Under the pieces are notes generated by a model. It made no database searches. It was not told where the DNA came from and saw only the letters and a list, made by a program, of their open reading frames with translations. This document shows, in pieces, positions 1,909-44,883 of a DNA stretch of 45,781 nt (positions are counted from its first letter, which is position 1; every line of letters begins with the position of its first letter). This DNA is from Kofleriaceae bacterium. GTDB lineage: Bacteria > Myxococcota_A > Polyangia > Haliangiales > Haliangiaceae. The stretch is taken from the NCBI GenBank assembly GCA_022842285.1, contig JALHPV010000018.1, forward strand, positions 1 through 45,781. The letters run 5' to 3'. Made by a program: the position numbers and the translations under genes.

Positions 1909-3437
<1,529 letters not shown>

Positions 3438-3443
3438 GTCGTC

Positions 3444-3449
3444 ACGCTA
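3444..3449 (-). promoter_or_regulatory. -10-like TAGCGT upstream of the VWA gene
   Basis: TAGCGT is followed by GACGAC and then the GTG start, a spacing of six bases. No Shine-Dalgarno is visible. This fits a -10 box of a leaderless transcript (inference). Confidence 0.4.
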
Positions 3450-3456
3450 GCATCTT

Positions 3457-4302
3457 TTACCGGCTGACGACGCGCGCGGCGGGCAGAGCAGCGTGACGAG
3501 ACGAAGCCTCGCGCAGGGTCGCGAGCGTGGCGACGGGGACGAACATGCCCGCCGACGGCTCGACGATGAGGCCGCGCTCGCCGAGGAGCTCGCAGAGCAG
3601 GAGGCTGTTCTTGATGCGCGCCATGCCGGCGCGGGCCCAGGCGAGGCGCTTGCCACGCTTGTGCACCGCGAAGCCGCTGCCGTTCGCGACGACCTTCTCG
3701 ATCTCCGCGAGGGCGAGCGTGCCCTTGCGGTCGTGCTCGACCTCGGCAGCGCCGAGCTTAAACGGCGCGAAGTCGAGCGCGCCGCGTGCGCGCAGCCGGC
3801 GGTGCACCTCGGGGAAGATGCGCTGGAGGGCGCGCGCGACATCCTTGAATTGCGGATCGATCGAGATGCGCTTGCCGTCGGTGCCGACGAGCTTCAGCGC
3901 CCCCATCGAGAACCGTGCGTGCTCCTGGCCCTTCTTCTTGCGCGAGCGGGCGACCGCGCCGGCCACGAGCGCGACGACGAGGACACCGATGAGGCCGCCC
4001 TGCACGCCGGCCGCATACGCGTAGGTCTGATCCTGCGACCAGTACTTGTAGTGGTCGATCTCGTCCCACCCGAGATGCTTCGTCGTGATCAGGCCCTTGC
4101 ACGTGATCCCGTCGGGGGCGATCGTCAGCCGACGCCGCGCATACGCGATCGCGACCCAGCCGAACAGGAGCGCGAGCGCACCGAACAGGAGTTGCGCCTC
4201 CACGTACGGAATCGCCGCGGCCGCCAGTACCATCAGGACAGCGAACAGGCCCACCACGATGGGCGTACCCACGGTCGCGCGCAGCTCGACGCGGTCATCC
4301 AT
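3457..4302 (-). CDS. membrane protein with a PH-like domain (DUF6585-like)
   Basis: The protein has 281 residues. Two hydrophobic stretches at about 13-33 and 38-56 form an N-terminal hairpin, followed by a PH-like strand pattern (RRLTIAPDGITCKGL, then LGWDEIDHYKYW). A third hydrophobic stretch at about 97-118 ends in RSRKKKG. The rest is soluble and looks like a second PH-like unit (FSMGALKLVGTDGKRISIDP). The layout resembles the DUF6585 family of unknown function; I am fairly sure of the architecture and unsure of the family. The ATG at 4302 gives a start just before the first membrane helix. It sits 18 bases after the FG-GAP lipoprotein stop on the same strand. Confidence 0.75.
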   Translation of the reverse strand: MDDRVELRATVGTPIVVGLFAVLMVLAAAAIPYVEAQLLFGALALLFGWVAIAYARRRLTIAPDGITCKGLITTKHLGWDEIDHYKYWSQDQTYAYAAGVQGGLIGVLVVALVAGAVARSRKKKGQEHARFSMGALKLVGTDGKRISIDPQFKDVARALQRIFPEVHRRLRARGALDFAPFKLGAAEVEHDRKGTLALAEIEKVVANGSGFAVHKRGKRLAWARAGMARIKNSLLLCELLGERGLIVEPSAGMFVPVATLATLREASSRHAALPAARVVSR

Positions 4303-4309
4303 GCCCGCG

Positions 4310-4315
4310 ATGGTA
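4310..4315 (-). promoter_or_regulatory. -10-like TACCAT upstream of the PH-like gene
   Basis: TACCAT lies seven bases before the ATG at 4302. There is no Shine-Dalgarno. It has the same geometry as the other TAnnnT sites in this window. Confidence 0.4.
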
Positions 4316-4320
4316 GCAGC

Positions 4321-5616
4321 TCAGCGGTGGCAGTCGCGGCCCAGAAGAATCACGACCTCATCGGGCCGGCCGTTCCCGAGCCCCACCACCGCATCCATGT
4401 GGCCATCCCCATCGAGATCACCCATCGCGAGCTCGGTGACCTCCCCGCCGGTCCCTGGAAATCCGATGTTCTCTCGCACCGCGAATGCCCCTGTTCCGTC
4501 GCCCGTCGCGAGCGCGAGCAACGCGCCGGACTCCCCGTGCGGGGCGAGGATGTCCGGGTGCCCATCGCCCGTGAAGTCCGCACTGACGATGCTCTCGTGG
4601 GCCGCACCGCCGAAGGGCACCTTCACCATGCGGAACGTGCCCTTGCCCTCGTTGAGCTGGAGCTCCATGCCGTCGGCGCACGTGTACGCAGCATCGCGAT
4701 CGCCGTCGCCATCGAGATCCGCATCGGCCAGGAACGCGGGCGAGCCACACGTGGTGGTGAGCTGGTTCGCCGTGAACCTTCCCTTCTGATTCAGCACGCT
4801 GAAGAAGAAGCTCTCGTCGTTCGACACGTAGGCGAGGTCGTTCAGCTTGTCGCCGTCGAGGTCGGTGATGAGCGGACCGTCGGGCGCCTGGCCGGTCTTC
4901 ACGATCGCCTTGCGTTTGAAGGTGAACGGCCCCGTGCCGCGATAGACCTCGACATGAGTGAACGTATCGACGACGAGGTCGACTCGTCGGTCGCCATCGA
5001 TGTCGCTCAGCGACGCGCTGTAGGGCTTACGCGCGGTGACGAGCGGGGGCTTGGCCCCGAACGTGCCGTCGCCGGCGCCCCTGAAGAGCTCGATGCGCTT
5101 CTCGTCCGGGTTTGCGATCGACACGTCGAGGATGCCATCGCCATCGAGGTCGGCCGTTGACACCGCGTAGACGAAGCGGCTCTCCGTGGGCGTCCACGCC
5201 TTGGGAGCCTCGATCGTCCCGTCACCCGCGCCGCGAAAGACGCCGATCCTCCCCCCCGGCGTGTCCCACATCGTCGCGAGAACATCGACCTTGCCGTCCC
5301 CGTCGAAGTCCGCGACCACGAGCGCACTCAGCGACTCCTCCATCGCGTAGGTGGCACCCGACACGAAGCAGCTAGGCGGGGGCGGGGGCGGTGGTTTGGG
5401 ACGCGAGTCGTCGGGGCGCTCGGCGGGGGCGGGGCCGTCGATGACGGCATCGCGAGGGGACGCATCGATCGGGGCGGGGCCGTCGATGACGGCATCGCGC
5501 GGGGACGCATCGATCGGCGGCGGTGCGTCGCGCGGCGACACGTGGTCGGGCTGGATGCGGCGCCACGCATCCTCGTCGTGACAGCCCACGAGCGCAACCA
5601 GGATCAGCCAGCGCAT
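4321..5616 (-). CDS. FG-GAP/VCBS-repeat lipoprotein
   Basis: The protein has 431 residues. The N-terminus MRWLILVALVGC is a short lipoprotein signal with a lipobox (LVGC), so the mature protein is lipid-anchored. Next comes a low-complexity linker of about 65 residues, rich in Pro, Asp and Ala, containing two copies of a 15-residue unit (PIDASPRDAVIDGPA) and a Pro-8 run. From about residue 90 to the end there are FG-GAP/VCBS repeats with Ca-binding loops D-x-D-G-D-G (DFDGDGKVDVL, DLDGDGILDVS, DIDGDRRVDLV, DLDGDKLNDLA, DLDGDGDRDAA, DLDGDGHMDAV). These fold as a beta-propeller of the integrin type and usually bind ligands at the cell surface; the ligand is unknown. Confidence 0.9.
   Translation of the reverse strand: MRWLILVALVGCHDEDAWRRIQPDHVSPRDAPPPIDASPRDAVIDGPAPIDASPRDAVIDGPAPAERPDDSRPKPPPPPPPSCFVSGATYAMEESLSALVVADFDGDGKVDVLATMWDTPGGRIGVFRGAGDGTIEAPKAWTPTESRFVYAVSTADLDGDGILDVSIANPDEKRIELFRGAGDGTFGAKPPLVTARKPYSASLSDIDGDRRVDLVVDTFTHVEVYRGTGPFTFKRKAIVKTGQAPDGPLITDLDGDKLNDLAYVSNDESFFFSVLNQKGRFTANQLTTTCGSPAFLADADLDGDGDRDAAYTCADGMELQLNEGKGTFRMVKVPFGGAAHESIVSADFTGDGHPDILAPHGESGALLALATGDGTGAFAVRENIGFPGTGGEVTELAMGDLDGDGHMDAVVGLGNGRPDEVVILLGRDCHR
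5426..5515 (-). repeat. two 45-bp tandem copies within the lipoprotein linker
   Basis: Units 5426-5470 and 5471-5515 are identical apart from one visible base change near the middle (gcgaggggac versus gcgcggggac). Each codes for 15 residues, so the reading frame is kept. The repeat can expand or contract without breaking the protein. Confidence 0.85.
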
Positions 5617-25737: not shown

Positions 25738-27006
25738 TCAGGTCGCTTCGGATCGTCGAGGGAACCAGATGTACGTGGCGATGGCGAAGCCGACGGGGAG
25801 CAGCATCATCGCGAGGGTGATGGGCAGGGTCTCCTGGAGCATCCCCAGCACGGTCGGGGACCAGAGGTCACCGAGGAGGTGGATCATGAAGATGCCGACC
25901 GCCATGGCGCTGGCGCGCAGGAAGGCGGGAGCGGTGCGCAACATGATGGCGTTGATGGGCGCGGTGGACATGAACAGCCCCACCTCCGCGATGCCGGCGC
26001 ACGTGAAGAACAGCGCCTGGGACGGCATGAAGAAGGCGAGGGCGGTCATCGGCGCGGCGATGGCGACGCCGATCATGCAGACCCGCAGCTGTGCGTTCGC
26101 GGCCACGCGATTCGCGAGGTCCTCGTGGCCGGCGGACGGGTCGACCGACGGCAAGCCGCGCACCGAGCGGTCCGAGAGGTAGCCGCCGAGGAACGTGCCG
26201 ATGGCGCCGGCGACGACGGTGACGGTGCCGAACAGGAAGCTCGCGCTGGCGAGCGCCGCCTTGCCCGCCTCGCTGGCGATGGAGGCCCCGCTGTAGCGGT
26301 CGACGAGGAAGGTGGGCGCCCAGTGCGAGAAGGCGCCGATCGCGCCCGTGTGCGCGCAGTAGCCGAGGACGGCGCGGCGATAGAGCGGGATCCGCATCAG
26401 CGTGCCGATCGTGGCCGCGATGGAGCTCTTCACAACATCGTGGACCTTGCGCACCGGCTCGTCGATCAGGAGCACGGTGAACGCGAGGAGGATGCCCGGG
26501 CCCCCACCGACGAAGAATGCCTCGCGCCAGCCCCAGTGCGCCTGGATCTGTCCGCCGAGCACGTAGCCGAGCGCGGAGCCAAGCGGCGTGGCGAGGAAGA
26601 AGATGGCGAGCGCCTTGCCCTTCTTCTCGGGCGGGGTGATGTCGTCGATGATCGTCGGCGCGAGGGTCGCGTAGCTCGCCTCGCCGATGCCGACGAACGC
26701 CCGCGCGGTCACGAGCGTCCAGAAGTCGGTGGCGAGGCCCGAGCAGATGGTCGCGGCGCTCCACACGAACACGCCGGCGGCGATGAGCCGCTTGCGCGAC
26801 ATGCGATCGCCGAGCGAGCCGAAGATCGGCGACGTGACGAAGTAGCCGAGGAGGAACACGGTCGCGAGCAGGCCGCCCTCGGTGGGCGACAGCAGGAGCT
26901 CCTCGCGGAGCGGCGGCAGCACGGCCGCCACGATGTAGCGGTCGAGGTAGTTGATGAAGTTGAGAGCCGTGAGCAGCGCGATGATCGCGGTGCGGTTGCG
27001 AATCAT
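25738..27006 (-). CDS. MFS transporter, spinster-like
   Basis: The protein has 422 residues with about 12 hydrophobic segments, an inner-membrane secondary transporter. The start ATG at 27006 gives [20 protein letters not shown]-type N-terminus with the LDRYIVA motif. Signature A between helices 2 and 3 is [11 protein letters not shown], and G-W-R-E-A-F-F is the spinster-type motif between halves. Spinster-type carriers move lipids, sphingolipids or related organic anions, but the substrate here is unknown. It overlaps the TPR/PEGA gene by four bases (ATGA), so the two are probably coupled. It is not an ethanolamine permease of the Eat type. Confidence 0.9.
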
Positions 27007-28112
27007 CGACGCATCTCGAGGAACGCGAGCACCGGAAACACCCGCGTCGACTGCGAGCTGTCGTTCTGGCTTTCGTAGAGCCGCCCATTGTAGAAGCGTG
27101 CGCCCGATTCGATCGTGAGCGCCCAGGTTCGCGTCTCGTTCTCGCTGAGGTCGAAGCGTAGGCCCACGGGGAAGCCGAGGCCGCCGATCGATCCGATGTA
27201 GTTCACGAGGAACCCGGCATACATCGCGAACTTGCCGGCGTTGATGAACCGCCACCGGAGGCCGCCCTCGAACCCGAGGTTGCGACGCGCATCGCCGACT
27301 CGTACGACGACGTCGCTCTGGCCGACCTGCAGGCCCGCCGTCGCGAACGCGTACTCGTGAGTCGATTCGCCGAAGCCCGCGCCGGCCCCGCCTCCCATGA
27401 ACCACTTGACGACGCGGGGAGGGCTGGGAGGTTCGCCGGTGAGGATCACTTGCTCAGGCGTACGAGCGGTGGTCGCGCCCGGCCCAACCGCCGGGGGATC
27501 ATTCACGGAGCCCAGCTCCGGACCGATCGCGCTCGAGTGCGTCGACTGCGGCGTGGCGCCCGACCCGGGAGTGGCGGTCGGAGCCTCCCAGCTCACGTCG
27601 ATGACGATGCGCTCGCCAAACTCTGCGAGGTGCCGGCGTTCGTCACGCTTCGTGTCGTTGATCTTGACGACGATCGTGCGCGAGCCCTCGTTGACCTCGC
27701 CCCGGTACGGCGTGGTGCCGACCTTGTTGCCGTCGATGATCACGAGCGCGCCGGTGGGCTTGCTCGTCACGACGATCGGCGAGGGCTTGGCGCGGAGCTG
27801 CTCCATCTTGCCCTCGACGCGCTCCCGCTCCTTCTGGTCGCCCGTCATGTCGACGAACGTGCCGTACCACTCGTACGCCTCCCGGAGCTTGCCAAGTCGC
27901 TCGTAGTCGAGCGCGATGTTGTAGGCCGTGTTCTCGTGCTGGACGAGCTTGAACGCGAGGACGTACTGGTCGATGGCCTTCGCGTACTGCTTCTTCTTGT
28001 CGAGCGCCTGACCGGCCGCGAACGCCTTGCCGGCGTCTTCGCGATCACCGGCCTGCGCCGGCGCCGCGCCGAGTACCAGCACGAGGAGAAGTGAGAGCCA
28101 CCGCGCCGTCAC
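27003..28112 (-). CDS. secreted TPR/PEGA-domain protein with outer-membrane-like C-terminus
   Basis: The protein has 369 residues. The signal peptide is MTARWLSLLLVLVLGAAPAQA. A TPR unit (about 30-105) is followed by a PEGA domain (about 110-175: IVVTSKPTGALVIIDGNKVGTTPYRGEV). A linker rich in Pro, Ser and Thr follows. The last 140 residues alternate Gly and aromatic strands (GFEGGLRWRFINAGKFAMYAGFLVNY) and end in [11 protein letters not shown], as in small beta-barrels or OmpA-like barrels. The start is a GTG at 28112, with the TAGAAC hexamer six bases before. It lies 12 bases after the kinase stop; the PEGA domain in both proteins suggests a common function at the envelope. Confidence 0.85.
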   Translation of the reverse strand: MTARWLSLLLVLVLGAAPAQAGDREDAGKAFAAGQALDKKKQYAKAIDQYVLAFKLVQHENTAYNIALDYERLGKLREAYEWYGTFVDMTGDQKERERVEGKMEQLRAKPSPIVVTSKPTGALVIIDGNKVGTTPYRGEVNEGSRTIVVKINDTKRDERRHLAEFGERIVIDVSWEAPTATPGSGATPQSTHSSAIGPELGSVNDPPAVGPGATTARTPEQVILTGEPPSPPRVVKWFMGGGAGAGFGESTHEYAFATAGLQVGQSDVVVRVGDARRNLGFEGGLRWRFINAGKFAMYAGFLVNYIGSIGGLGFPVGLRFDLSENETRTWALTIESGARFYNGRLYESQNDSSQSTRVFPVLAFLEMRR

Positions 28113-28124
28113 GGGACCGTTCTA

Positions 28125-29732
28125 TCAGCTTTTCTGGAACGGATTCGGCTTGCCGCCGCCGCTGCCGGGCTTCTTCTTCGGCGTCTTGTTGTCCGTCGGC
28201 AACACGGTGGGATTCGGGGGAGTGGGATTCGTCTGGGGAGTTGGCGGCTGGGCGCTACCACTGGCCTCGAACGGATTGGGGTCTGACACCTTGGTGGGGG
28301 TCGTGGTCGTCCCCCCCGGCTTCTTCGCCGCGGTCGTCGTCCCGGGCCGGGGCTGGGGCAGGAGCGGCAGCTGCATCGCGACCTTCGTCTCTTCGCCAGC
28401 CCGCACCTCGCGTACGAACGTCACGAGCTCGTGGCCTTGGGCCGAGAGGACGACCTTGTGATCGCCCGCGGCGAGCGTGACCTCGGCGGGGGAGGGGCCG
28501 CGCCCGACATCGTCGACGGTGACCAGCGCGCCCTCGGGCTTCACGTCGATGACCAGCCGGCCGAGCGCGGGCACGACGGCGGAGCCAGGGGTCGGCGCAG
28601 ATGGCCTCGCGGCCGGCTCGACGGGCGAGGCGGTTGCCTGCGTCGGCAACTCCGGCCGGGCCTTCGGCTCCTTGGTCAGGTAAACGCCGACCGCGCCGGC
28701 GGCGGCGACGACGAATCCGACGCCCGCGATCCACGGCCACTTCGCGCTCTTGCGACGTGTCGCCCGGGGCCGATCGATCGATGCGGGCGTCTGTAGCGCC
28801 GGCGCCGAGCTCGAGGCGTGCTTCCCGCTCTGCATCGTGCCCGCGAGCTCCATCTGCGAGGGACTCTTGCCGGCGGGGAGGGCGGCGGCGAAGTCCTCGG
28901 CGGAGCTGAAGCGCGCGCGCGGATCCTTCTCGAGCGCGCGGTGCACGGTGGCCACGAGCCGGGGCGACAGCCCAGCGCGCACGTCGCTGAGGAGCGGGGG
29001 CTCCGTCGTGAGCAGCTTGGAGATCAAGACCGCGTACGTGGCGCCCTCGAACGGCGGCTTGCCGGCGAGCATCTCGTAGAGGATCACGCCGCAGGCGTAG
29101 ATGTCGGCGTAGCGCTCGACGGGCTCGCCCATCGCCTGCTCGGGCGCCATGTACAGCGGCGTGCCGATCACGACGCCCGTGGTGGTGAGCTTCGTCGCGG
29201 CGACGGCCTCGTCGGCGCCCACGACCTTCGAGATGCCGAAGTCGAGGAGCTTGACGAAGTCCTCGCCGTCCTCGTTCTGGAGCAGGAAGATGTTGTCGGG
29301 CTTCAGGTCGCGGTGAACGATGCCCTTGCCGTGAGCGGCTCCGACGGCACGGAGCACCTGCCGCATGATGACGGTCGCCCGCGGCGGCGGGATGGGGCCC
29401 TGCTCGATCAGGTGCGCCAGGGGCATGCCCTTGGAGAGCAGCTCCATCACGACGAACGAGCGGCCATCGGGGGCGGTGCCGATGTCGTTGACGTCGATGA
29501 TGTGTGGGTTGCCGATCTTGCTGGCGGCGAGCGCCTCGCGCTGGAACCGCGCCATGGCCTCGGAGTCGTCCGAGTACTTCTCGAGCATCAGCTTGACGGC
29601 CACGCGCTTGCCAAGCGTCGTGTGCTCGCACTCGTAGACCACACCCATGCCGCCGCGCCCGATCTCACGGATCACGCGATACTTGTCGGCGAGGACGACC
29701 CCGACCAATGTGTCCCGAACCGCGGCGTTCAC
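28125..29732 (-). CDS. Ser/Thr protein kinase with a PEGA domain
   Basis: The protein has 535 residues. A Hanks-type kinase fills about 1-285: GRGGMG (25-30), the ATP-binding K47 in AVKLM, the catalytic loop H140-R-D142-L-K-P-D-N, DFG (164-166), and the APE segment MAPEQA. A single membrane helix is at about 332-352 (WIAGVGFVVAAAGAVGVYL), after a basic stretch. The extracytoplasmic part has a PEGA domain (about 400-470: RLVIDVKPEGALVTVDDVG) and a Pro/Thr-rich tail. The start GTG at 29732 was chosen because it gives a 16-base gap to eutL; a longer frame from ATG 29792 would overlap eutL. It could sense a periplasmic signal and regulate the ethanolamine genes, but this is an inference. Confidence 0.93.
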   Translation of the reverse strand: MNAAVRDTLVGVVLADKYRVIREIGRGGMGVVYECEHTTLGKRVAVKLMLEKYSDDSEAMARFQREALAASKIGNPHIIDVNDIGTAPDGRSFVVMELLSKGMPLAHLIEQGPIPPPRATVIMRQVLRAVGAAHGKGIVHRDLKPDNIFLLQNEDGEDFVKLLDFGISKVVGADEAVAATKLTTTGVVIGTPLYMAPEQAMGEPVERYADIYACGVILYEMLAGKPPFEGATYAVLISKLLTTEPPLLSDVRAGLSPRLVATVHRALEKDPRARFSSAEDFAAALPAGKSPSQMELAGTMQSGKHASSSAPALQTPASIDRPRATRRKSAKWPWIAGVGFVVAAAGAVGVYLTKEPKARPELPTQATASPVEPAARPSAPTPGSAVVPALGRLVIDVKPEGALVTVDDVGRGPSPAEVTLAAGDHKVVLSAQGHELVTFVREVRAGEETKVAMQLPLLPQPRPGTTTAAKKPGGTTTTPTKVSDPNPFEASGSAQPPTPQTNPTPPNPTVLPTDNKTPKKKPGSGGGKPNPFQKS

Positions 29733-29748: not shown

Positions 29749-30438
29749 TCAGCGGCGGGGGGCCCCTGCCACGTCGACCACCGCCGCGGCATAGGCCGTC
29801 GCGGCCGCCTCGCAGGCGTCCAGGGACCCCGTCAGCCAGGCGCAGGCGAAGTTGGTCTCGGTCGGCGGGGGCGTGACCCGTACGGCCCGGACGTCCGCGG
29901 CCTTCAGGGCCGCATCGAGGGCGATCGTGGCCTCGAGCGGTGGCGCCACCAGGTATGCCATGGACGTACCTGGCGTGAGCCCCGACTCCCGGGACAGGTA
30001 CTCGCCGAGGGCGGAGATCACATGAGGGAACACCGTGACCGTGCGCTTGCCGTCGGCGTCGTAGAAGCACGCATCATGCTGGAGGCAGGCCAGCAGCGCC
30101 GTGAGCCCGTCCTCGATCGCCTGCGGCTCGGCCGCTGCGATCACGCCGAGGATCTCGCCCGACAGGCGACCGCTCGCGTGCGCGGCCCCGGCATAGAAGC
30201 TCTTCGCGAAGATGACGTCGATCCGCGCGTGCTTCGTGGCCTCGTCGAGGGCGACGTACAGCGCGTCGTCCTGGTCACAGGTCACGAGGCCGAGCGAGAC
30301 GTGCTTGCTCGGATCGCCGCCATACGCCGTGACGAGGGCGGGATCGGCGTGCGGGAGGCGGCGCACGGAGAGCACCGTCGGAACGATCGGCTCGAGGATG
30401 CCCATCCGAGGCGAAGGCGGGGCGGTTGGATGACTCAT
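29749..30438 (-). CDS. eutL: ethanolamine microcompartment shell protein EutL
   Basis: The protein has 229 residues; EutL is about 219. The matching blocks are GILEPIVPTVLSVRRLPHAD, HVSLGLVTCDQDDALYVALD, ATKHARIDVIFAKSFYAGAAH and GRLSGEILGVIAAAEP. EutL is a trimeric double-BMC-domain shell protein with a large gated pore through which cofactor B12 or substrate is thought to pass. Its start overlaps the eutC stop by four bases (ATGA), so it is made together with the lyase subunit. No EutM, EutK, EutN, EutS, EutG, EutE or EutD is present in the window, so either the shell is encoded elsewhere or EutL works outside a typical shell. Confidence 0.93.
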   Translation of the reverse strand: MSHPTAPPSPRMGILEPIVPTVLSVRRLPHADPALVTAYGGDPSKHVSLGLVTCDQDDALYVALDEATKHARIDVIFAKSFYAGAAHASGRLSGEILGVIAAAEPQAIEDGLTALLACLQHDACFYDADGKRTVTVFPHVISALGEYLSRESGLTPGTSMAYLVAPPLEATIALDAALKAADVRAVRVTPPPTETNFACAWLTGSLDACEAAATAYAAAVVDVAGAPRR

Positions 30439-31334
30439 GGATTGACCAGGCGCTGGCGGACTTGCGGAGCGCGATAGCCGCGCCCCCCGGCGACCTCCCC
30501 GAGCTTGCCGAGGTCGAGCGTCACGCCCGACGTCTGCTGCGCGATCATCGCAGCAGCGAGCGCGGCGAGGCGCTGCGCGGCATCAGACGGCACGATGCCG
30601 CGCTCGTGGATGTTCGAGATCATGTTGCGCTCGCCGTCGGTGTTGCCGATCTTGGGCCCGTAGACGACATAGGCCGAGAGGCCATCGCCGGTGCCGAGTC
30701 CCGGCCGCTCGCCGAGGAGGATCATGGAGACCTTGGCGCGCGTCTCCTGCCCGATCTCGTCCTCGAGCCAGACCCGAGCAAAGCGCGCGCAGACGGGGGT
30801 GCCGATCGTGAGGCCGCGCGCGGTGCAGGCGGCGGCGACCGCATCGTGGAGCGCCTTCCCCGTCTGCATGCAGGCCACGGCGGAGAGACCGTCGGCCACG
30901 ATGAGCTGGACGTCGACCTGCTTGGTGCACTGCGCCCGCACCACCGCGAGCGACTCGTCGGAGAGCCGCCGGCCGAGGTCGGGCCGCAGCAGGAACTCGC
31001 GGTGCGACGTCACGCGCGTGACGAGCGGGACGAACCCGTTCTGGGCCGCCCACTCGGGCGGGAGCTCGGTGTCGACGGCGGCGTGGGCGACAGCCAGCTC
31101 CGCCTGGAACTGGAGGACGACATCGGTCGCGTAGCGCGTGCCCACGTGGCCAATTCCGACGAGTGCCGTGGTGTGCCGCGCGGCCTCGGCCGCGAAGGCA
31201 TGCTTCTCCGGGCGCGGCGTGTAGACGCGGGCCGGTGGTGCGGGGATCGGCGGCAGCGGCTCGCGAGGCGGCAGGGGGGCGGCCCCACCGAGGGCGGCAC
31301 GCAGCTCGTCCATGATCTGCCGGGTCCGCGACAC
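30435..31334 (-). CDS. eutC: ethanolamine ammonia-lyase, light chain
   Basis: The protein has 299 residues, normal for EutC (about 295). It binds the lower face of adenosylcobalamin together with EutB. Conserved blocks are VGIGHVGTRY, SHREFLLRPDLGRRLS, DVQLIVADGLSA and VILLGERPGLG-like (MILLGERPGLGTGDGLSAYV). The C-terminus YGPKIGNTDGERNMISNIH also matches. The start is a GTG at 31334, and the ATG at 31313 (MDELRAALGG) is an alternative that better matches other EutC proteins. It is separated from eutB by three genes. It is divergent from the radical SAM gene across 104 bases. Confidence 0.95.
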   Translation of the reverse strand: MSRTRQIMDELRAALGGAAPLPPREPLPPIPAPPARVYTPRPEKHAFAAEAARHTTALVGIGHVGTRYATDVVLQFQAELAVAHAAVDTELPPEWAAQNGFVPLVTRVTSHREFLLRPDLGRRLSDESLAVVRAQCTKQVDVQLIVADGLSAVACMQTGKALHDAVAAACTARGLTIGTPVCARFARVWLEDEIGQETRAKVSMILLGERPGLGTGDGLSAYVVYGPKIGNTDGERNMISNIHERGIVPSDAAQRLAALAAAMIAQQTSGVTLDLGKLGEVAGGRGYRAPQVRQRLVNP

Positions 31335-31438
31335 GCGTAGGCGGACAGTACGTCGAGGCTTGAACAGCGTCTACCACCACCTCCACCCGGGAATCGCGGA
31401 GTTACCGCCCGGCACACAGCTCGCACTTGCGGCCGGGC

Positions 31439-32488
31439 ATGGACAGCACGCCGCGGCTCCGTCGCTCGTTTCACTGGGAAGACCTTCGCGTTGCCGGCAA
31501 GATCGCCAAGGCCGTCGTCGATCGCGATCGCCCGCTGATCACGCACCTCGTGATCACACGCCGCTGCAACCTGTCCTGCGGTTACTGCTTCGAGTACGAC
31601 AAGGTCAGCCCGCCCGTGCCGACGGAGGTGCTCGAACAGCGCCTGGCGCACATGGCGGCGTTGAAGAGCGTGTTCGTCACCCTGACCGGCGGGGAGTCGC
31701 TGCTGCATCCAGACGCCGCCCACCTCGTTCGCCATGCGCGCACCCTGGGGATGATCCCGTTCCTCAACACGAACGGCTATCTGCTCACGAAGCAGTGGAT
31801 CGATGCGCTGAACCAGGCCGGCCTCTACGGCATGCAGATCAGCATCGACAACGTCGAGCCGAACGAGACCTCGAAGAAGTCGCTGAGGTTGCTACTTCCA
31901 AAGCTCCGCCTGCTCGCGCGCGAGGCGAAGTTCCGCGTCCGCATCAACACCGTGCTCGGCTCGTCGGCGCCCGAGGAAGCGCTGGAGGTCGGGCGGGCAG
32001 CGGTCGCGCTGGGCTTTGACACCAACTGCTCGCTCGTGCGCGACGATAGCGGCGCGCTCGTGGAGCCGAGCGAGCGGACACGCGAGGTGTACGAGCAGAT
32101 CCGCGGCCTCGGCCGCCGCCTCCCGTCGTTCATGGATGACTCGTTCACGCAGACGCTCCTCGACGAGGGCGCGATCGACTGGAAGTGCCGCGCCGGAGCT
32201 CGCACCTTCATGGTCTGCGAGAACGGCCTCGTTCATCTCTGCCAGCCGCGCATGGGCGTGAATGCCCGCCCGCTCCTCGAGTACACGACCGAGGACATCC
32301 GCGCGGCCTTCGACGAGGTCAAGCCGTGCGCGAAGCACTGCCCCATCGCGTACGCGCATCACGCCAGCAAGTTCGATGGCTGGCGCTCGCAGCGGGGGCC
32401 GAAGCTCCTCGTCGCCCCGCCGGTCCCGCCGCCGCCTGCGATCGCGACGGCCGCGCGCCGGAGTAGCGCGCTCGCCGTCCTGTTCTGA
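31439..32488 (+). CDS. radical SAM protein with auxiliary Cys-rich C-terminus
   Basis: The protein has 349 residues. The iron-sulfur motif C43-x3-C47-x2-C50 (ITRRCNLSCGYC) binds the [4Fe-4S] cluster that cleaves S-adenosylmethionine. VTLTGGES is the GGE motif for the SAM amino group. In the C-terminal third there are six more Cys (WKC, then MVCENGLVHLC, then CAKHC), the pattern of a SPASM or twitch auxiliary cluster, often found in peptide-modifying enzymes. No precursor peptide is obvious next to it, apart from a small secreted protein 10 bases away in convergent orientation. The function is unknown. The ATG at 31439 was preferred to a TTG at 31427. Confidence 0.85.
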   Translation: MDSTPRLRRSFHWEDLRVAGKIAKAVVDRDRPLITHLVITRRCNLSCGYCFEYDKVSPPVPTEVLEQRLAHMAALKSVFVTLTGGESLLHPDAAHLVRHARTLGMIPFLNTNGYLLTKQWIDALNQAGLYGMQISIDNVEPNETSKKSLRLLLPKLRLLAREAKFRVRINTVLGSSAPEEALEVGRAAVALGFDTNCSLVRDDSGALVEPSERTREVYEQIRGLGRRLPSFMDDSFTQTLLDEGAIDWKCRAGARTFMVCENGLVHLCQPRMGVNARPLLEYTTEDIRAAFDEVKPCAKHCPIAYAHHASKFDGWRSQRGPKLLVAPPVPPPPAIATAARRSSALAVLF

Positions 32489-32497
32489 TCAGGGAAC

Positions 32498-32881
32498 CTA
32501 CGCCTTCTTGATCGAGTTGCTCTTGCCGTTCGACGACGTCTTGGGCTTCTTCAGCTTCGCGTCGAGCGCCTTCTTCCAGGTGACCGTGTTCTTCGAACCG
32601 TTCACGGAGATCTTGTTCACGCCATCGAGCTCGGCGGTGTTGTCGTTGCCGTTCACGCTGATGCTCTTCACCGAGCCGATGACCTTCACGTCGTTGCCGT
32701 TGATGGTCACCAACTCGCATACGCCCGTGAGCGTGACGGTGTTCTTGTTCCCCATCACGGTGACGCTCGAGTCCTTCGCGCAGTCGACCGTCTGCGTCTT
32801 GTCGTTGTCCATCATGGTCACGTCCGCCGACGCGCTCGACACGAGGAGGGCCACACCCAGCACACCGAAGATATTCTTCAT
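32498..32881 (-). CDS. small secreted DUF3060 protein
   Basis: The protein has 127 residues. The signal peptide is MKNIFGVLGVALLVSSASA. The mature part has the DUF3060 repeat: short turns of N-G-N/S-x-N-x-V (VMGNKNTVTLTG, TINGNDVKVIG, SVNGNDNTAELDG, SVNGSKNTVTW), suggesting a small beta-helix. It ends in a Lys-rich tail (KALDAKLKKPKTSSNGKSNSIKKA). The function is unknown, perhaps at the surface or in the periplasm. The ATG at 32881 has a GAGG nearby. It shares a 26-base divergent gap with the VOC gene. Confidence 0.85.
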   Translation of the reverse strand: MKNIFGVLGVALLVSSASADVTMMDNDKTQTVDCAKDSSVTVMGNKNTVTLTGVCELVTINGNDVKVIGSVKSISVNGNDNTAELDGVNKISVNGSKNTVTWKKALDAKLKKPKTSSNGKSNSIKKA

Positions 32882-32887
32882 GTCCTC

Positions 32888-32899
32888 GATACTAGTATC
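32888..32899. promoter_or_regulatory. 12-bp perfect palindrome GATACTAGTATC with two -10-like hexamers
   Basis: The dyad fills the centre of a 26-base divergent gap. Read leftward it contains TAGTAT seven bases before the DUF3060 start; read rightward it contains TAGTAT nine bases before the VOC start. It may therefore be the -10 region of both genes, an operator, or both. Confidence 0.5.
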
Positions 32900-32907
32900 T
32901 TCGGCGG

Positions 32908-33705
32908 GTGTCGTCCCCGGAAACTCACGGTCACCTTGCCTGGTACGAGCTGATGTCGATCGACCCGAAAGGCTCCCTCGCGTTTTATTCAAATCTATTT
33001 GGATGGACGAGCCAGGCGTTCGGCGACGAGGGCTACGTGATGTTCGTCTCTCCGCAGGGACCACTCGGGGGCGTGACCGAGACCACACCGGAGGCGAAGG
33101 CGATGGGGGCCACGTCGTTCTGGATGGCGCACATCGAGGTCGCCGATGTCGAGTCCGCGGTGGCGAAGGTGACCGCCGGCGGCGGGTCCGTGGTGCATCG
33201 CGAGAACGTGCCGACGGTCGGCGACTTCGCGGTCATTCGCGATCCGCAGTCGGCGGTGATCTCGGTGTTCAAGCCGGCGACCTCGATGAAGCCCCACGAT
33301 CCGGCCCGGGCCGGCGAGTTCTGCTGGGCCGAGCTCTACACGACCGATGCCCCGAAGGCGCTCGCCTTCTTCAGCGACCTCGTTGGCTGGACCCAGATCC
33401 AGAAGCTCCCGATTCCGCCGCTGGGCGACTACTACATCTTCGGCAGCGGGGCCGTCGGCAAGGGCGGGATGATGAACCTGCCGCCGGGCGCGCAGACGCC
33501 CGACGGTCGCGCGGTACCGCCCTCGTGGATGTTCTACGTGCGCGTTGCCGATCTGGATGCGTCGCTCGAGCGTGCGACGACCCTCGGCTCGACGGTGATC
33601 AACGGCCCGCTGTCGATGCCGGGGGGGCAGCGCGTCGTGCAGATGATCGATCCCTTCGGCGCCGCGTTCGCGATGGCGTCGATGCCGGTCTCACCGAACG
33701 GCTGA
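32908..33705 (+). CDS. two-domain VOC (glyoxalase/bleomycin-resistance fold) protein
   Basis: The protein has 265 residues with two tandem VOC domains, about 7-125 and 138-258. Each starts with a beta-strand-helix pattern (HGHLAWYELMSIDPKGSLAFYSNLFGW; then GEFCWAELYTTDAPKALAFFSDLVGW). VOC proteins are metalloenzymes or binding proteins; the usual metal ligands are His/Glu at the strand ends (H8, E14-like positions), but the substrate is unknown. The start is a GTG at 32908. The 3' end overlaps eutB on the other strand by 15 bases. Confidence 0.85.
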   Translation: MSSPETHGHLAWYELMSIDPKGSLAFYSNLFGWTSQAFGDEGYVMFVSPQGPLGGVTETTPEAKAMGATSFWMAHIEVADVESAVAKVTAGGGSVVHRENVPTVGDFAVIRDPQSAVISVFKPATSMKPHDPARAGEFCWAELYTTDAPKALAFFSDLVGWTQIQKLPIPPLGDYYIFGSGAVGKGGMMNLPPGAQTPDGRAVPPSWMFYVRVADLDASLERATTLGSTVINGPLSMPGGQRVVQMIDPFGAAFAMASMPVSPNG

Positions 33706-35052
33706 GACGTCGCCGAAGCGCGGCCCCGGGGCATCGTCACGCCAGATACCGGTGCGTTCGAGCCACGCATCGAACTCCGGCGTGGGGCGCTTGTGCAGCA
33801 GGCGGCGTAGCGTCGGGATGTCGTGATAGCTCGTCGACTGGTAGTTCAGCATGATGTCGTCGCCGACGGGCAGGGACATCAGATACGTGCAGCCGGCGGC
33901 ACCGAGGAGGACCTTCAGGCTCTCCAGCTCGTCCTGTGACATGCGCGCGTGATAGGTGAAACACGCGTCACAGCCCATGGGCAGGCCCAGGAGCTTGCCC
34001 ATGCAGTGGTCCTCGAGGGCCGCGCGCGAGATCTGCGGGCCATCCTCGAGGTACTCGGGCCCGATGAAGCCGACGACGGTGTTCACGAGGAACGGGTCGT
34101 ACCGGCGTGCGAAGCCGTAGGCCCGCGCTTCGATCGTGACCTGATCCGCGCCGTGGTGCGTCTGCGAGGACAGCGCCGAGCCCTGGCCCGTCTCGAAGTA
34201 CATCCGATTTGGACCCTTCGCCGTGCCCTTCTGCTTCATCAGCGCCCACGCGTCGTCGATGAGCTTCAGGCTGATGCCGAACGCGGCGTTCGCAGCCTGC
34301 GTGCCGGCGACGGACTGGAACATCAGATCCATCGGACAGCCGAGCTCGAGCGCCTTCATCTGCACGGTCACGTGCGAGAGCACGCAGTGCTGGGTGGGGA
34401 TGCCATTGCGCTTCAGGAGGTCATCGATGGCGCGCAGGATCTCGGCGGTCGACTCGGCCGTATCGGTCGCGGGGTTGATGCCGATGACGGCATCGCCGCA
34501 GCCATATGCCAGACCCTCGCGTGCGGACGCGAGGATGCCGGCGACATCGTCGGTCGGGTGATTCGGCTGGCAGCGCGAGGAGAGTCGACCGGGGAGCCCG
34601 AGCGTGTTGTTCGCGCGCACGACAACCTGGCACTTCGCGCCGACCGTCATGAGATCGAAGTTCGACATGAGCTTCGCGGCCGCCGCCACCATCTCCGGGG
34701 TCAGGCCCGGCGCGACCGCCCGCAGCGTGGGCCCGGTCGTCTCGATGTCGAGCAGCCACTCGCGGAACTGCCCGACGGTGAGATGCCCCACGGCCTTGAA
34801 CGCACTCTCGTCGAGCTCGTCCTCGACCACCCGCGTGAGCTCGTCTTGCTCGTACGGGACGACGGGATGCTCGCGCAGATCGCGGAGCGTCAGATCCGCG
34901 AGGACGGCACGGGCCGCGACCCGCTCGACCGCATCACGCGCCGACACGCCAGCGAGGTCATCGCCGCTCTTCGGCGAATTCGCCTTCGCGAGCACCTCCT
35001 TGACGCTCGTGAACGCATAGCGCGTCCCTCGAATCGTCGCGGCGAGCTGCAT
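33691..35052 (-). CDS. eutB: ethanolamine ammonia-lyase, heavy chain
   Basis: The protein has 453 residues, the same as E. coli EutB. With EutC and adenosylcobalamin it converts ethanolamine to acetaldehyde and ammonia. All substrate-contact residues known for E. coli are present at the same numbers: R160 and Q162 (SSRCQPN), N193 (GINPATD), E287 (YFETGQ), D362 (GCDACF) and M392 (YLMSLP). The protein is therefore expected to be fully active. It begins MQLAATIRGTRYAFTSVKEVL. It is on the same strand as eutC but about 2.4 kb away, separated by the radical SAM, DUF3060 and VOC genes, an unusual arrangement. TAGTGT lies nine bases before the ATG. Confidence 0.97.
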   Translation of the reverse strand: MQLAATIRGTRYAFTSVKEVLAKANSPKSGDDLAGVSARDAVERVAARAVLADLTLRDLREHPVVPYEQDELTRVVEDELDESAFKAVGHLTVGQFREWLLDIETTGPTLRAVAPGLTPEMVAAAAKLMSNFDLMTVGAKCQVVVRANNTLGLPGRLSSRCQPNHPTDDVAGILASAREGLAYGCGDAVIGINPATDTAESTAEILRAIDDLLKRNGIPTQHCVLSHVTVQMKALELGCPMDLMFQSVAGTQAANAAFGISLKLIDDAWALMKQKGTAKGPNRMYFETGQGSALSSQTHHGADQVTIEARAYGFARRYDPFLVNTVVGFIGPEYLEDGPQISRAALEDHCMGKLLGLPMGCDACFTYHARMSQDELESLKVLLGAAGCTYLMSLPVGDDIMLNYQSTSYHDIPTLRRLLHKRPTPEFDAWLERTGIWRDDAPGPRFGDVSAVR

Positions 35053-40432: not shown

Positions 40433-43018
40433 TTACGGTTCGACGAAGATCGGGTTCGTCACCCCGAACGGCAGCCGTCCCGGGTGAACCGGTTCCAGCG
40501 CGCTGTCGCCATACGCGGCCACGACGACGAAGCTGCCCGCCGCGGCCGTCGCGATGTCGACCACTCCCGTCCAGCGCGTGGCGGGGTTGTCAGGGTCCGC
40601 GTCCTCCGGCATGACCGGGATCGTATCGACCGTCTCGCCATCGACGACCACGTCGATGGCATCGACATCGACCCACTGCGGGGCGCGCACGATGATCGCG
40701 ACCTGCTGGGGATTCCCCGCCCCCGTCGTCGACTCCCCGGGACCCTTGCCAGCGATGCGCGCGATCACCGAGATACCGCCATTGATCGCGGCCTTGCCAG
40801 CGCCAAGGGCATCCCGCACTTGTTCCTTCGACACCAGGCGCGGGTCGTCGGTCCCGAGCTCCATGCACGTACGCGGATACCCCACCGGCGACGACGAGAG
40901 CCGATGGCTATCCGACGAGCCGACGGCGAAGACCTTGCGGCCTGCGCGCAGGAGGCCGAACCAGTCGTCGACCACGCCGTCGCGGTTCTGGAGCCAGCCC
41001 GAATTGTTGAACACCTCGATCAGCGTGAACTTCGTATCCCAGGCCGCGGCCTGTTCGACCATCCCCGTGGCCGGGTCGTAGCCGACGTACTCGAAGTAGT
41101 TCACGCCACCGCGCGGGTGATTGATGATGACGAGCGGCTGCTCGGCGCGCGCACGCACCATGTCGAAGACGGCGGGCGGCGGCATCGTCTCGAACGGCGT
41201 GTCGGGCGAGGCCGCGGTCGGGAACCGCTGCCACTGGGGGGCGCCGTTGTTGCGCCGGGCGGGATCGGCCACGAGCGGAAACACGCCCATGTGGCCCCAC
41301 GTCTCGAACGACGTCAGCTCGACCGAACCGAACCCGGCCATGTACGGCTGCGCGTTCAGGCGCGCGATCTCGGCGGAGAAGTCTTCGACCCACTCGTGCT
41401 CCGAGCGCACGGGAAGTTCGAGCCCATCGGCGAGCGCCTGCCGCACCTTCTCGACGGCATCGTCGCCGGAGTCGCTCGAGCGCCACGTGTGGATGTGGAA
41501 GTCACCGCACAGCTCGGTCGGCGACGGTACGGAGTGGTCGACGACGAGCGGGACCTGCACGAGCTCGCCCGCGGGGACGGCGACGGTGCTCTCGCCAATC
41601 TCGTACTCGTAGCCGCGTGATGCAACCACGCGCCAGGTGCCGGGCGGCGTGGACAGGGTGACATCCCCCAGCACCGCGAACACCGTCTGCAACCGGCCGT
41701 TGAGACCGGTCTCGCCGTAGTTGGCGGGGACGGTCTCGACCGTCTGCCCGGCGGCCGGGAACAGCTGGATGCGAGCCGGCACGCCCCGCGCCTGCTCGTC
41801 GCGCACGACGACGCGGATGGTCCCGATAGGGGGCATGTCGACGGTGAACGGCCCGATCTCGGTCGCGCCCACGTCCAGGCGCCCGAACGGCTCTCCGCGA
41901 ATCGTGGCGATGAGCTTCACGTCGGTGTCGGGGGGAACGTGCGCCACGAACGTGCCATTCACGTTGGTGCGCGCCCGCGTGAGATAGGCGCCCGTCGTCG
42001 CATCCACGACGTGGACGTTCACGTTGTTGATGAGCGCTGGCCCCCGCGCCACCGTGCCTCCGATCGTGCGGAGCTCCTCGCCTCGGGTCCGGGCCACGGC
42101 GGCGACGATTCCGTCCGTGCCGGGGCCTCCGATGACGATCTGCGCGTGCTCGTGCGTCGTGGTCGTGCACCCCGCGATCGTGAAGCCAGCTCCGAAGGCG
42201 CCGATGAAGCCACCGGTCGCGATGCCCGTCTCGAGATCGCTGTTCGCGGCGATGTAGGCCCAGCCGGTCGCGCGCTCCGTCGTGAACGCGATGTACGGCG
42301 TGTCGGTGAACTGGTCGGTGAAGCCCTGGCCGGGCACGAACGCCGGCATGCGGTCCGCGAACATCGAACCGTGGAACAGGGCCGGGACCTCCGTCGCCTC
42401 GAGGCGCGGCGACAGGTACGTCAGCGCGATGTCCACGTGATCGCTATCGGGCTGCAGCGTGTAATCGATGGCGACCTCGATATCGGTGAACGCGTCGGGG
42501 AACACGCCCGACGTGATCGACTCGAAGAACGGCGTGGGCGACAGCTTGCCGCGTACACGGATCGTCGCCGCGCCGGGCTCGCTTCCATCCGCCACGATGC
42601 TGACAACTTCGGTCACCACCGAGGAGCGGCCGGTCAAGAGAAACACTTCGCCGAACGGCGACGGCTCGACCATCATGCCGCCCTGGACGCGCGCGACACC
42701 GACGGGACGACCGCCCCACGGATCGTAGAGGTCGCTGTCTCCGACGTCCTCGATCACGAGCGCCACCCGGTCGTTCGCCAGCACGTAGTCGCCTGCGCGC
42801 CAGAGCAAGAGACCCGTCGGATCGGTCGGCAACATCTCGGCGGTGACGCGTCCCGCGCGCGCTTCACCGGCGGAGGAGAGCAACGGTGAGGCATGCCCGA
42901 GGGCCGTCCCATCCTCGAGCGCGACGCTCAGCTCGCACGTCGCGGGAGCATCACCATCGCCATCGTCATCGCCGCAGGCTGCGAGAACACCGAGCAGGAG
43001 CAGGACGCGTGAAGTCAT
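40433..43018 (-). CDS. PHP-domain (CehA/McbA-like) lipoprotein
   Basis: The protein has 861 residues. The ATG at 43018 gives MTSRVLLLLGVLAAC, a lipoprotein signal with lipobox LAAC, followed by a Gly/Asp linker. The middle has two or three Ig-like/carboxypeptidase-regulatory units (about 330-500; VHVVDATTGAYLTRARTNVN, VVVRDEQARGVPARIQLFP). The C-terminal PHP metallohydrolase domain (about 520-760) has FHIHTW (H-x-H), RSEHEW, INHPRGG and GSSDSHR, the metal ligands of the CehA/McbA family. The likely reaction is phosphoester or carbamate hydrolysis; the substrate is not known. It overlaps the kinase stop by four bases (ATGA), so expression is coupled. Confidence 0.88.
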   Translation of the reverse strand: MTSRVLLLLGVLAACGDDDGDGDAPATCELSVALEDGTALGHASPLLSSAGEARAGRVTAEMLPTDPTGLLLWRAGDYVLANDRVALVIEDVGDSDLYDPWGGRPVGVARVQGGMMVEPSPFGEVFLLTGRSSVVTEVVSIVADGSEPGAATIRVRGKLSPTPFFESITSGVFPDAFTDIEVAIDYTLQPDSDHVDIALTYLSPRLEATEVPALFHGSMFADRMPAFVPGQGFTDQFTDTPYIAFTTERATGWAYIAANSDLETGIATGGFIGAFGAGFTIAGCTTTTHEHAQIVIGGPGTDGIVAAVARTRGEELRTIGGTVARGPALINNVNVHVVDATTGAYLTRARTNVNGTFVAHVPPDTDVKLIATIRGEPFGRLDVGATEIGPFTVDMPPIGTIRVVVRDEQARGVPARIQLFPAAGQTVETVPANYGETGLNGRLQTVFAVLGDVTLSTPPGTWRVVASRGYEYEIGESTVAVPAGELVQVPLVVDHSVPSPTELCGDFHIHTWRSSDSGDDAVEKVRQALADGLELPVRSEHEWVEDFSAEIARLNAQPYMAGFGSVELTSFETWGHMGVFPLVADPARRNNGAPQWQRFPTAASPDTPFETMPPPAVFDMVRARAEQPLVIINHPRGGVNYFEYVGYDPATGMVEQAAAWDTKFTLIEVFNNSGWLQNRDGVVDDWFGLLRAGRKVFAVGSSDSHRLSSSPVGYPRTCMELGTDDPRLVSKEQVRDALGAGKAAINGGISVIARIAGKGPGESTTGAGNPQQVAIIVRAPQWVDVDAIDVVVDGETVDTIPVMPEDADPDNPATRWTGVVDIATAAAGSFVVVAAYGDSALEPVHPGRLPFGVTNPIFVEP

Positions 43019-44883
43019 CGGGCCTTGACGGCAACGATAGACCAAGGCGCGTCTCGTCCGGGTAACGTTCCTGTGGCCTCGCCCCGATCGGTTCGTTCGA
43101 TCCTCACGAGCTGACCGGGTGTGAGTGTGAGCGTTGCCGCACCCGGGGTTCGAGGCTTGTCACCCGCGAGGCTCCAGGCGAGCGGGACCCCGTCGGCGCG
43201 CACGACAACGCTGTAGGTGCCGGCCTCGCCGCCGAACCGCAGGAGGTCGATATCGAGCCGCGCATCCAGGTAGCCATGCAGCTCGGCCCCCGGCACCCAG
43301 GCGGTGGCATCGGCCTCGCTGTTGTTGGGCTCCACCTCGCCGGTATCCGCGCGCTCCTCGGTCACGACGAGCGTGTACGGGTCGCTCACGTTCTCCGTCA
43401 CGAAGGTGGTGCCCGGCGCCACGGTCTGCGTGACGGTGACGATGATCGCGCCATCGATGCGCCGCCGATGAATCGCCTCGGCGCCGCCGAGCGGGGCCTC
43501 GTCGGTGACCGCGCGCCTGATGCCTCCCGCGTCCTCGATGGTGAGGTTCACGTCGATGTTCGGTGGCGACGTGACGGTGGCGGTGACCACGCGGCGCTGT
43601 CCGGTGCTCGGCACGATGTACGTGTCGATGTCCGGGGCCCTCGGCCCGATCCGCTTGCCCAGGTACCCCGTCACCTCGGTGTTGATGTCGATGCGGTTCG
43701 CGTCCGAGCGACCGTTGTTCGGCTCGTGCTCCTCCGTGACGGCCTTGGGTGGGCGCAGCATCAACCACACCCCGGCGGCGATGCCGCCGAGCACGGCGAG
43801 CGTCACCGTGGATGTGACGACGGCCCGGCGCACCTTCAACGAGCGTTCGTACGCGTCGATATCGGAGCGGCGAAGCCGGATCTCGCTCGGGTCGTGGAGC
43901 TCCTCGTCCGTGATGATCAGCGTCGGGCGGAGCTGCGTGCTGCCCTGGCGTCGGCGCTGGCCCGTCGCTTCGACCACGGTCTCGTGGAACGCTTCCTCGA
44001 TCGCCTCACCGAGCTGGGCCGCCGATTGCCACCGCTCCGACGGGTCGCGGGCGAGGGCGCGCCGGCAGATGTGGTCGGCCTGAGGCGGAATCCCGAGCTT
44101 CGGCGTGCGATTGCTGGGCGCGTCCGGTTCCGCGGTCAGGTGCTTCGTGAGCACGCCCACGGACGATTGAGCGTCATAGAGGTGCTGCCCGGTCAGCAGC
44201 TCGAACATGAGCGCGCCGAACGAGTAGATGTCGGTGCGGGCGTCGACGTCCTCGCCGCGGATCTGCTCCGGCGCCATGAAGTACGGTGTTCCGACGATCT
44301 GGCGATCGCTATCCAACGCCGGCGTGGTGCGCTCGTCGAGCTTGGCGAGGCCGAAGTCGAGCACCTTGGCGTAGTCGCGCCCGCCCGTCGAGCGCGTGAT
44401 GAGCACGTTCTCGGGCTTCAGATCACGATGCACGATGCCGAGCTCGTGGGCCTCCTGGAGGGCGCCGCAGATCTGCGCGAGGATCGGAGCGGCGCGCTCC
44501 CACTTCATCGGACCATCGCGGCCGAGCACGCGCGCGAGGTCGGCGCCCCGCACGAACTCCATGATGAGGTAGAGGGCTCCCTGCGCGGTGCCAAAGTCGA
44601 AGACCTGCACCGTGTGCGGGTGGTGGAGCTTCGAGACCGCGGCCGCCTCGCGCTCGAACCGCGCGATGACCTCCGCATCTCCGGCGAGGTCGCGGTGCAG
44701 GACCTTCATCGCCGCGACCTTGCCCATGCGGAGGTGCTGGACGCGGTAGACGACACCCATGCCGCCGCGCCCGATCACCTCGAGGACGCGGTAGCGGCCG
44801 TCGACGATCTTGTCGAGCCACGCGCGATTCGAATCCGAGAGGCGGCGATCGAGGGATTCCCCCGCGTCGGTCTCCGAGCCCAC
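43015..44883 (-). CDS. Ser/Thr protein kinase with two PPC domains
   Basis: The protein has 622 residues. The kinase domain (about 30-300) has GRGGMG (38-43), K60 (AAMKVL), H152-R-D154-L-K-P-E-N, DFG (176-178) and MAPEQI. A membrane helix is at about 353-376. Outside it are two PPC (pre-peptidase C-terminal-like) domains that begin with E-x-N-N (EHEPNNGRSDAN near 387 and GEVEPNNSEADA near 518). The second gives YSVVVRADG and LRFGGEAG strands. PPC domains help with secretion or binding of carbohydrate-like ligands, so the kinase may sense an envelope or surface cue. The start is a GTG at 44883 with TAGGAT six bases before. It is followed by the PHP lipoprotein, which it overlaps by four bases. 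Confidence 0.93.
   Translation of the reverse strand: MGSETDAGESLDRRLSDSNRAWLDKIVDGRYRVLEVIGRGGMGVVYRVQHLRMGKVAAMKVLHRDLAGDAEVIARFEREAAAVSKLHHPHTVQVFDFGTAQGALYLIMEFVRGADLARVLGRDGPMKWERAAPILAQICGALQEAHELGIVHRDLKPENVLITRSTGGRDYAKVLDFGLAKLDERTTPALDSDRQIVGTPYFMAPEQIRGEDVDARTDIYSFGALMFELLTGQHLYDAQSSVGVLTKHLTAEPDAPSNRTPKLGIPPQADHICRRALARDPSERWQSAAQLGEAIEEAFHETVVEATGQRRRQGSTQLRPTLIITDEELHDPSEIRLRRSDIDAYERSLKVRRAVVTSTVTLAVLGGIAAGVWLMLRPPKAVTEEHEPNNGRSDANRIDINTEVTGYLGKRIGPRAPDIDTYIVPSTGQRRVVTATVTSPPNIDVNLTIEDAGGIRRAVTDEAPLGGAEAIHRRRIDGAIIVTVTQTVAPGTTFVTENVSDPYTLVVTEERADTGEVEPNNSEADATAWVPGAELHGYLDARLDIDLLRFGGEAGTYSVVVRADGVPLAWSLAGDKPRTPGAATLTLTPGQLVRIERTDRGEATGTLPGRDAPWSIVAVKAR

What the first reader, a model, noticed from the sequence alone, without database searches (positions are those of the whole stretch)
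29749..35052. EutL and EutC tied to a PEGA kinase, with EutB split off
eutC, eutL, a PEGA Ser/Thr kinase, a TPR/PEGA envelope protein and an MFS transporter form a tight minus-strand run (gaps 16, 12 and overlaps of 4 bases). eutB lies 2.4 kb away behind a radical SAM, a DUF3060 and a VOC gene. EutB keeps all the catalytic residues. No other shell or pathway gene is here. A lone EutL with EutBC, and a kinase next to the lyase, differ from the enterobacterial eut operon and from EutBC-only (permease-linked) types.
Basis: partly seen in the sequence, partly recalled or inferred. Interest (0 to 1): 0.6.

Follow-up and report, generated by a model that had tools for sequence, protein, structure and literature searches.

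The report
Ethanolamine add-on for scattered bacterial microcompartment
This myxobacterium has no classical ethanolamine operon; it carries a small ethanolamine-splitting add-on (EutB, EutC and one shell protein, EutL) that most likely plugs into a Haliangium-type protein compartment encoded elsewhere in its genome, an arrangement already described and here shown to be widespread in Myxococcota, but lacking the usual repair enzyme EutA.

Summary
In detail: EutL, EutC and EutB are intact, and the neighbouring kinase, TPR/PEGA and MFS genes are spaced as stated. "No other shell gene" is true only of the window. The same genome encodes a Haliangium ochraceum (HO)-type shell on three other contigs, an EutE/PduP-type aldehyde dehydrogenase, and PduL fused to acetate kinase. 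The locus is best read as a satellite "EUT module" of an HO-type microcompartment, a kind reported by Sutter et al. 2021 (PMC8217296). In 377 genomes of the phylum EutL occurs in 95; all 95 have vertex proteins and 93 have EutB. The usual order is a compact eutB-eutC-eutL; the split from EutB is an insertion within the window's genus. The kinase-TPR/PEGA-MFS tail (MFS closest to spinster lysolipid transporters) accompanies eutL in the window and five related genomes (MFS seen in four of the five) but not elsewhere: a clade-level association of unknown function. One departure from the published module: EutA, the reactivating factor, is missing here and from all EutL-positive genomes sampled. 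In passing: EutL fused to an EutT-like adenosyltransferase in other Myxococcota.

The parts
33691..35052 (-). eutB, ethanolamine ammonia-lyase large subunit, 453 aa
   Evidence: PF06751 663 bits; NF011649 646 bits, cut-off 554; only EutB in the genome
31335..33690 (.). 2,356-base insertion between eutB and eutC, holding a radical SAM gene (31427-32488 +), a small secreted-protein ORF (32319-32720 -) and a VOC gene (32908-33705 +)
   Evidence: absent in compact relatives and different from the insert in L079/L118/L078
30435..31334 (-). eutC, ethanolamine ammonia-lyase small subunit, 299 aa, with a 45-residue N-terminal extension (short helix plus Pro-rich linker) that may be an encapsulation peptide
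   Evidence: PF05985 222 bits; NF003971 234 bits, cut-off 230; extension recurs in relatives
29749..30438 (-). eutL, BMC-Tsp shell protein, 229 aa
   Evidence: TIGR04502 260 bits, NF011934 250 bits with cut-off 198; full-length match to solved EutL chains; alignment A1
28125..29732 (-). Ser/Thr kinase with C-terminal PEGA domain, catalytic motifs present; clade-level neighbour of eutL
   Evidence: PF00069 163 bits, PF08308 39.5 bits; motifs GRGGMG, VAVK, HRDLKPDN, DFG, APE; orthologues beside eutL in L079, L118, L120, L121, L142
27003..28112 (-). TPR/PEGA protein, same clade-level block
   Evidence: PF08308 31 bits; same order in L079, L118, L120, L121, L142
25738..27006 (-). MFS transporter, spinster-like, same clade-level block
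   Evidence: PF07690 174 bits; SPNS1/SPNS2 159-172 bits against 63 for the next family in the PDB list; same order in L118, L120, L121, L142

Best explanation
The locus is a satellite EUT module of a Haliangium-type (HO) microcompartment whose other genes lie on other contigs. EutBC, an adenosylcobalamin enzyme, is carried into the HO shell, probably by the EutC N-terminal extension, and EutL inserts into that shell as a trimeric tile that lets ethanolamine in. EutBC splits ethanolamine into ammonia and acetaldehyde; the HO aldehyde dehydrogenase, which has its own helix of encapsulation-peptide type, makes acetyl-CoA inside; the PduL-acetate kinase fusion can make acetate and ATP, probably outside. 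Shown: gene content, intact enzymes, conservation, co-occurrence with the shell. Inferred: co-assembly, cargo targeting and flux. The eutB-eutC insertion is a late event in the genus. The kinase, TPR/PEGA and spinster-type transporter block is a clade-specific neighbour; regulation and supply of a lipid-derived substrate are its likeliest roles if linked, but that is inference.
For: HO-type shell set: BMC-H nearest HO-5815, BMC-Ts nearest 5dih, BMC-Tdp nearest 5v76 at 319 bits, three BMC-P, main locus order. AldDH of the PRK15398 type, 643 bits, cut-off 403, with an N-terminal helix that is more amphipathic than 96% of shuffles. PduL-AckA fusion. All 95 EutL-positive genomes have BMC-P, 93 have EutB; none of 223 genomes lacking BMC-P has EutL. 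Published precedent: EUT modules as HO, SPU3 and SPU6 satellites.
Against: No EutA in the genome although the published module is given as EutA/B/C. The EutC extension is not significantly amphipathic by itself (12% of shuffles reach it). No EutH. 59 genomes have BMC-P without EutL, so the shell has another primary job. The co-occurrence test ignores relatedness.
Confidence: 0.82

Rival explanations
1. EutBC works free in the cytosol and EutL is a vestige; the HO compartment has an unrelated job such as deoxyribose or nucleic-acid breakdown.
For: No EutA or EutH; the HO function in the literature is called enigmatic and linked to sugar-phosphate catabolism; the genome lacks other Eut accessory genes that were searched.
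Against: EutL is intact, with invariant D57, D58, E95 and E169 across 15 relatives, and has been kept next to eutBC in over 70 genomes, always with a shell.
Confidence: 0.1
2. The kinase, TPR/PEGA and MFS genes belong to the ethanolamine system itself: the kinase regulates it and the spinster-type MFS supplies a lipid-derived substrate such as lysophosphatidylethanolamine or moves ethanolamine.
For: The block follows eutL in the window, L118, L120, L121 and L142, with kinase and TPR/PEGA also in L079, where the contig ends; no EutH is present; the MFS protein is far closer to SPNS1/SPNS2 than to other solved MFS proteins; SPNS1 acts in lysosomal lipid transport (PMC10115416).
Against: The block is missing beside eutL in the sister genus and in the other lineages examined, and in G366 and G298 of the same genus. 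Protein kinases are very common here, at least 150 in the genome. Substrate and direction of the MFS protein are unknown.
Confidence: 0.2
3. The kinase block is only a chance neighbour preserved by short divergence time.
For: All genomes with the block fall in one EutL clade of 13 rows; at least 150 kinases make chance adjacency easy.
Against: The order kinase, TPR/PEGA, MFS survives kinase divergence to about 50% identity and insertions between eutL and the kinase in L079 and L118.
Confidence: 0.5

Closest known systems
Satellite 'EUT module' of HO, SPU3 and SPU6 microcompartments (Sutter et al. 2021, PMC8217296)
   Same: Ethanolamine ammonia-lyase genes and a EutL-type BMC-Tsp away from an HO main locus
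   Different: No EutA here or in any EutL-positive genome sampled; eutB separated by an insertion; kinase, TPR/PEGA and MFS tail
HO microcompartment of Haliangium ochraceum (model shell)
   Same: BMC-H, BMC-Ts, BMC-Tdp and three BMC-P, AldDH in the main locus, two BMC-P on a satellite
   Different: H. ochraceum is listed with only three BMC-T genes (PMC4207490), whereas this genome has EutL as a further one
EUT1 operon of enterobacteria and EUT2 loci
   Same: EutB, EutC and EutL homologues
   Different: No operon, no EutA, no EutH, HO-type shell instead of the Eut shell set
EutBC-only, permease-linked ethanolamine degradation
   Same: EutB and EutC
   Different: A shell protein sits beside eutC and a full shell is in the genome

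Membership tests
EUT module satellite of an HO BMC | EutB and EutC present away from the main shell locus | tested here: met
EUT module satellite of an HO BMC | EutL-type BMC-Tsp beside them | tested here: met
EUT module satellite of an HO BMC | EutA in the module | tested here: not met
   No PF06277 match at E 0.001 in the genome; the published wording is EutA/B/C and 'some satellite loci resemble', so it is unclear whether EutA is required for HO; filed as a EutA-less variant
HO BMC | BMC-P triplet | tested here: met
HO BMC | Main locus with BMC-H, BMC-P, AldDH, BMC-Ts and BMC-Tdp of HO type | tested here: met
   BMC-Tdp on C307; the BMC-Tdp of C103 was read from sequence only, since the frame sent was wrong
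HO BMC | pfam01791 aldolase elsewhere in the genome | not tested
   contig C310 ends just after the two BMC-P genes
EUT1/EUT2 locus | Shell genes, EutA and core enzymes in one locus with EutBC | tested here: not met
EutBC-only (permease-linked) | No BMC shell protein in the genome | tested here: not met
Functional microcompartment | EutL and EutBC physically in the HO shell | not testable with these tools
   needs purification and proteomics or microscopy

The most novel reading that the evidence does not exclude
Myxococcota run a EutA-less, microcompartment-bound ethanolamine lyase with a different way of keeping the B12 enzyme active, and one clade has coupled it to a PEGA kinase and a spinster-type lysolipid transporter, giving a lipid-scavenging organelle under kinase control.
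Probability: 0.12. Interest if true: 0.7.

Novelty: new variant of a known kind. Interest (0 to 1): 0.4.

Why it matters
The HO shell is a main structural model of microcompartments, yet its natural substrate is called enigmatic in the literature. A quarter of the sampled genomes of the phylum carry EutBC with EutL, and always together with vertex proteins, so ethanolamine becomes a directly testable substrate for many of them. The phylum-wide absence of EutA next to an intact B12 lyase makes enzyme reactivation a clear open question.

Tried and rejected
Complete eut operon elsewhere: not found. PduG-type reactivase as a EutA substitute: none. A general kinase-eutL association across Myxococcota: rejected; kinases next to eutL in L102, L133 and L139 have other architectures. 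My first view that the kinase was mere coincidence, drawn from the phylum sample, was overturned by named relatives. A common origin of the eutB-eutC inserts: L079, L118 and L078 share one, the window's has no blastn match to it. One BMC-T frame that I queried was wrong and gave no match; the right frame ends at L008:2659. A blastp of the window kinase was done in a wrong frame and is not used; kinase kinship rests on tblastn. Two Pfam calls were rejected for bad references. Literature searches for EutA-less EAL, EutL-EutT fusion and spinster links gave nothing decisive.

Full report
What is there. The window is contig C18 of a 7.9 Mb, 550-contig assembly. On the minus strand it holds eutB 33691-35052, a 2.4 kb insertion, eutC 30435-31334, eutL 29749-30438, a PEGA Ser/Thr kinase 28125-29732, a TPR/PEGA protein 27003-28112 and an MFS transporter 25738-27006. 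Family scores are far above chance. EutL aligns over its whole length to solved EutL chains. Its D57, D58, E95 and E169 line up, by a constant offset of 12, with D45, D46, E83 and E157 of the E. coli chain and are invariant in 15 relatives; that these residues line the pore or bind metal is from memory. EutB keeps the recalled active-site residues; position 257 is Ala, as in the aligned chain 2qez.

The rest of the organelle is elsewhere in the genome. Searches for BMC domains and vertex proteins find an HO-type main locus on C103 (BMC-Tdp ending at 2659, BMC-H 2686-2976, BMC-P 2983-3273, AldDH 3277-4827, BMC-Ts 4824-5504), two BMC-P at the end of C310 and a BMC-Tdp on C307. The nearest solved relatives are HO shell proteins. 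The AldDH fits the EutE/PduP-like model PRK15398. PduL is fused to acetate kinase on C251, a fusion type already noted in PMC4784909. There is one EutB, no EutA, no DDR reactivase and no EutH.

Comparative evidence. In 377 genomes of the phylum EutL is in 95; all 95 have a vertex protein and 93 have EutB. The converse does not hold: 59 genomes have vertex proteins without EutL. Where eutB and eutL share a contig, eutB lies upstream with 0.9-1.3 kb between them, room for eutC, in all but the four genomes of the window's genus, which show gaps of 3346, 2744 and 1426 bases and one inversion. The sister genus keeps 956-986 bases. L120, whose EutL is 86% identical to the window's, keeps a 91-base eutB-eutC gap. 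The split is therefore derived and recent. EutA occurs in only four sampled genomes, which have EutBC but neither EutL nor vertex proteins. That phylum search used a strict threshold (1e-30); the own-genome search used 0.001.

The kinase block. In the phylum sample only one other genome (G369) had the kinase and TPR/PEGA genes near eutL. Named genomes added L118, L120, L121 and L142, all with kinase, TPR/PEGA and MFS in the same order; in L120 the six genes form one compact run. The EutL tree puts these genomes in one clade of 13 rows (97/95 support) that also contains the sister genus without the block. G366 has an amidase-like ORF on the other strand after eutL, and G298 has eutB there. Kinases next to eutL in three other lineages have different domains. 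The genome holds at least 150 protein kinases. I conclude that the block is a true but clade-limited association. The MFS protein is closest to SPNS1/SPNS2, which opens a lipid-supply reading that is untested.

What is known. Sutter et al. [quoted passage not shown] The window fits this apart from EutA. The finding is therefore a variant of a known kind. What is added here: the phylum-wide linkage to the shell, the absence of EutA, the explanation of the split, and the clade-specific tail.

Limits. All evidence is from sequence; co-assembly, targeting and flux are inferred. The Fisher test ignores relatedness. The supplement of the 2021 paper could not be read. The EutC N-terminal helix was not significantly more amphipathic than shuffles; its case rests on position, the Pro-rich linker and recurrence in relatives. 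The genome is a fragmented draft with 4% contamination, so absence of EutA or EutH in it alone is weak; the phylum sample makes the EutA absence firmer.

Noticed in passing
L105:5613-6953 (-); also L091, L093, L099, L110, L112, L151, L154, L158, L162: EutL fused in one frame to a C-terminal EutT-like cobalamin adenosyltransferase domain (PF01923; NF011595 67-103 bits) in at least 16 genomes of the phylum sample. No paper found that describes it; it would place B12 adenosylation on the shell. The window's EutL is not fused.
   Followed up: partly
Phylum sample; G292, G339, G368, G370: EutA is absent from every EutL-positive genome sampled; the only four EutA-positive genomes have EutBC without EutL or vertex proteins.
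   Followed up: partly
L117:9194-11116 (-), contig C251 of the window's genome: Acetate kinase fused to PduL in one 640-aa frame; such fusions were noted before in PMC4784909.
   Followed up: partly
window 31427-32488 (+) and 32319-32720 (-): The radical SAM frame overlaps an opposite-strand small secreted-protein ORF by about 170 bases; the end of one of the two frames may be wrong.
   Followed up: no
G004, G020, G025, G044, G049, G059 (f23), G076, G263, G322, G351 (f7): eutB lies on a different contig from eutL, so eutB has separated from eutL in other lineages too.
   Followed up: no
L137, L141, L143: Contigs binned as Planctomycetota carry eutB-eutC-eutL similar to the myxobacterial ones (58-63% EutL identity); transfer or mis-binning not examined.
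   Followed up: no
window 43015-44883 (-): A second Ser/Thr kinase in the same window, unrelated in its C-terminal half.
   Followed up: no
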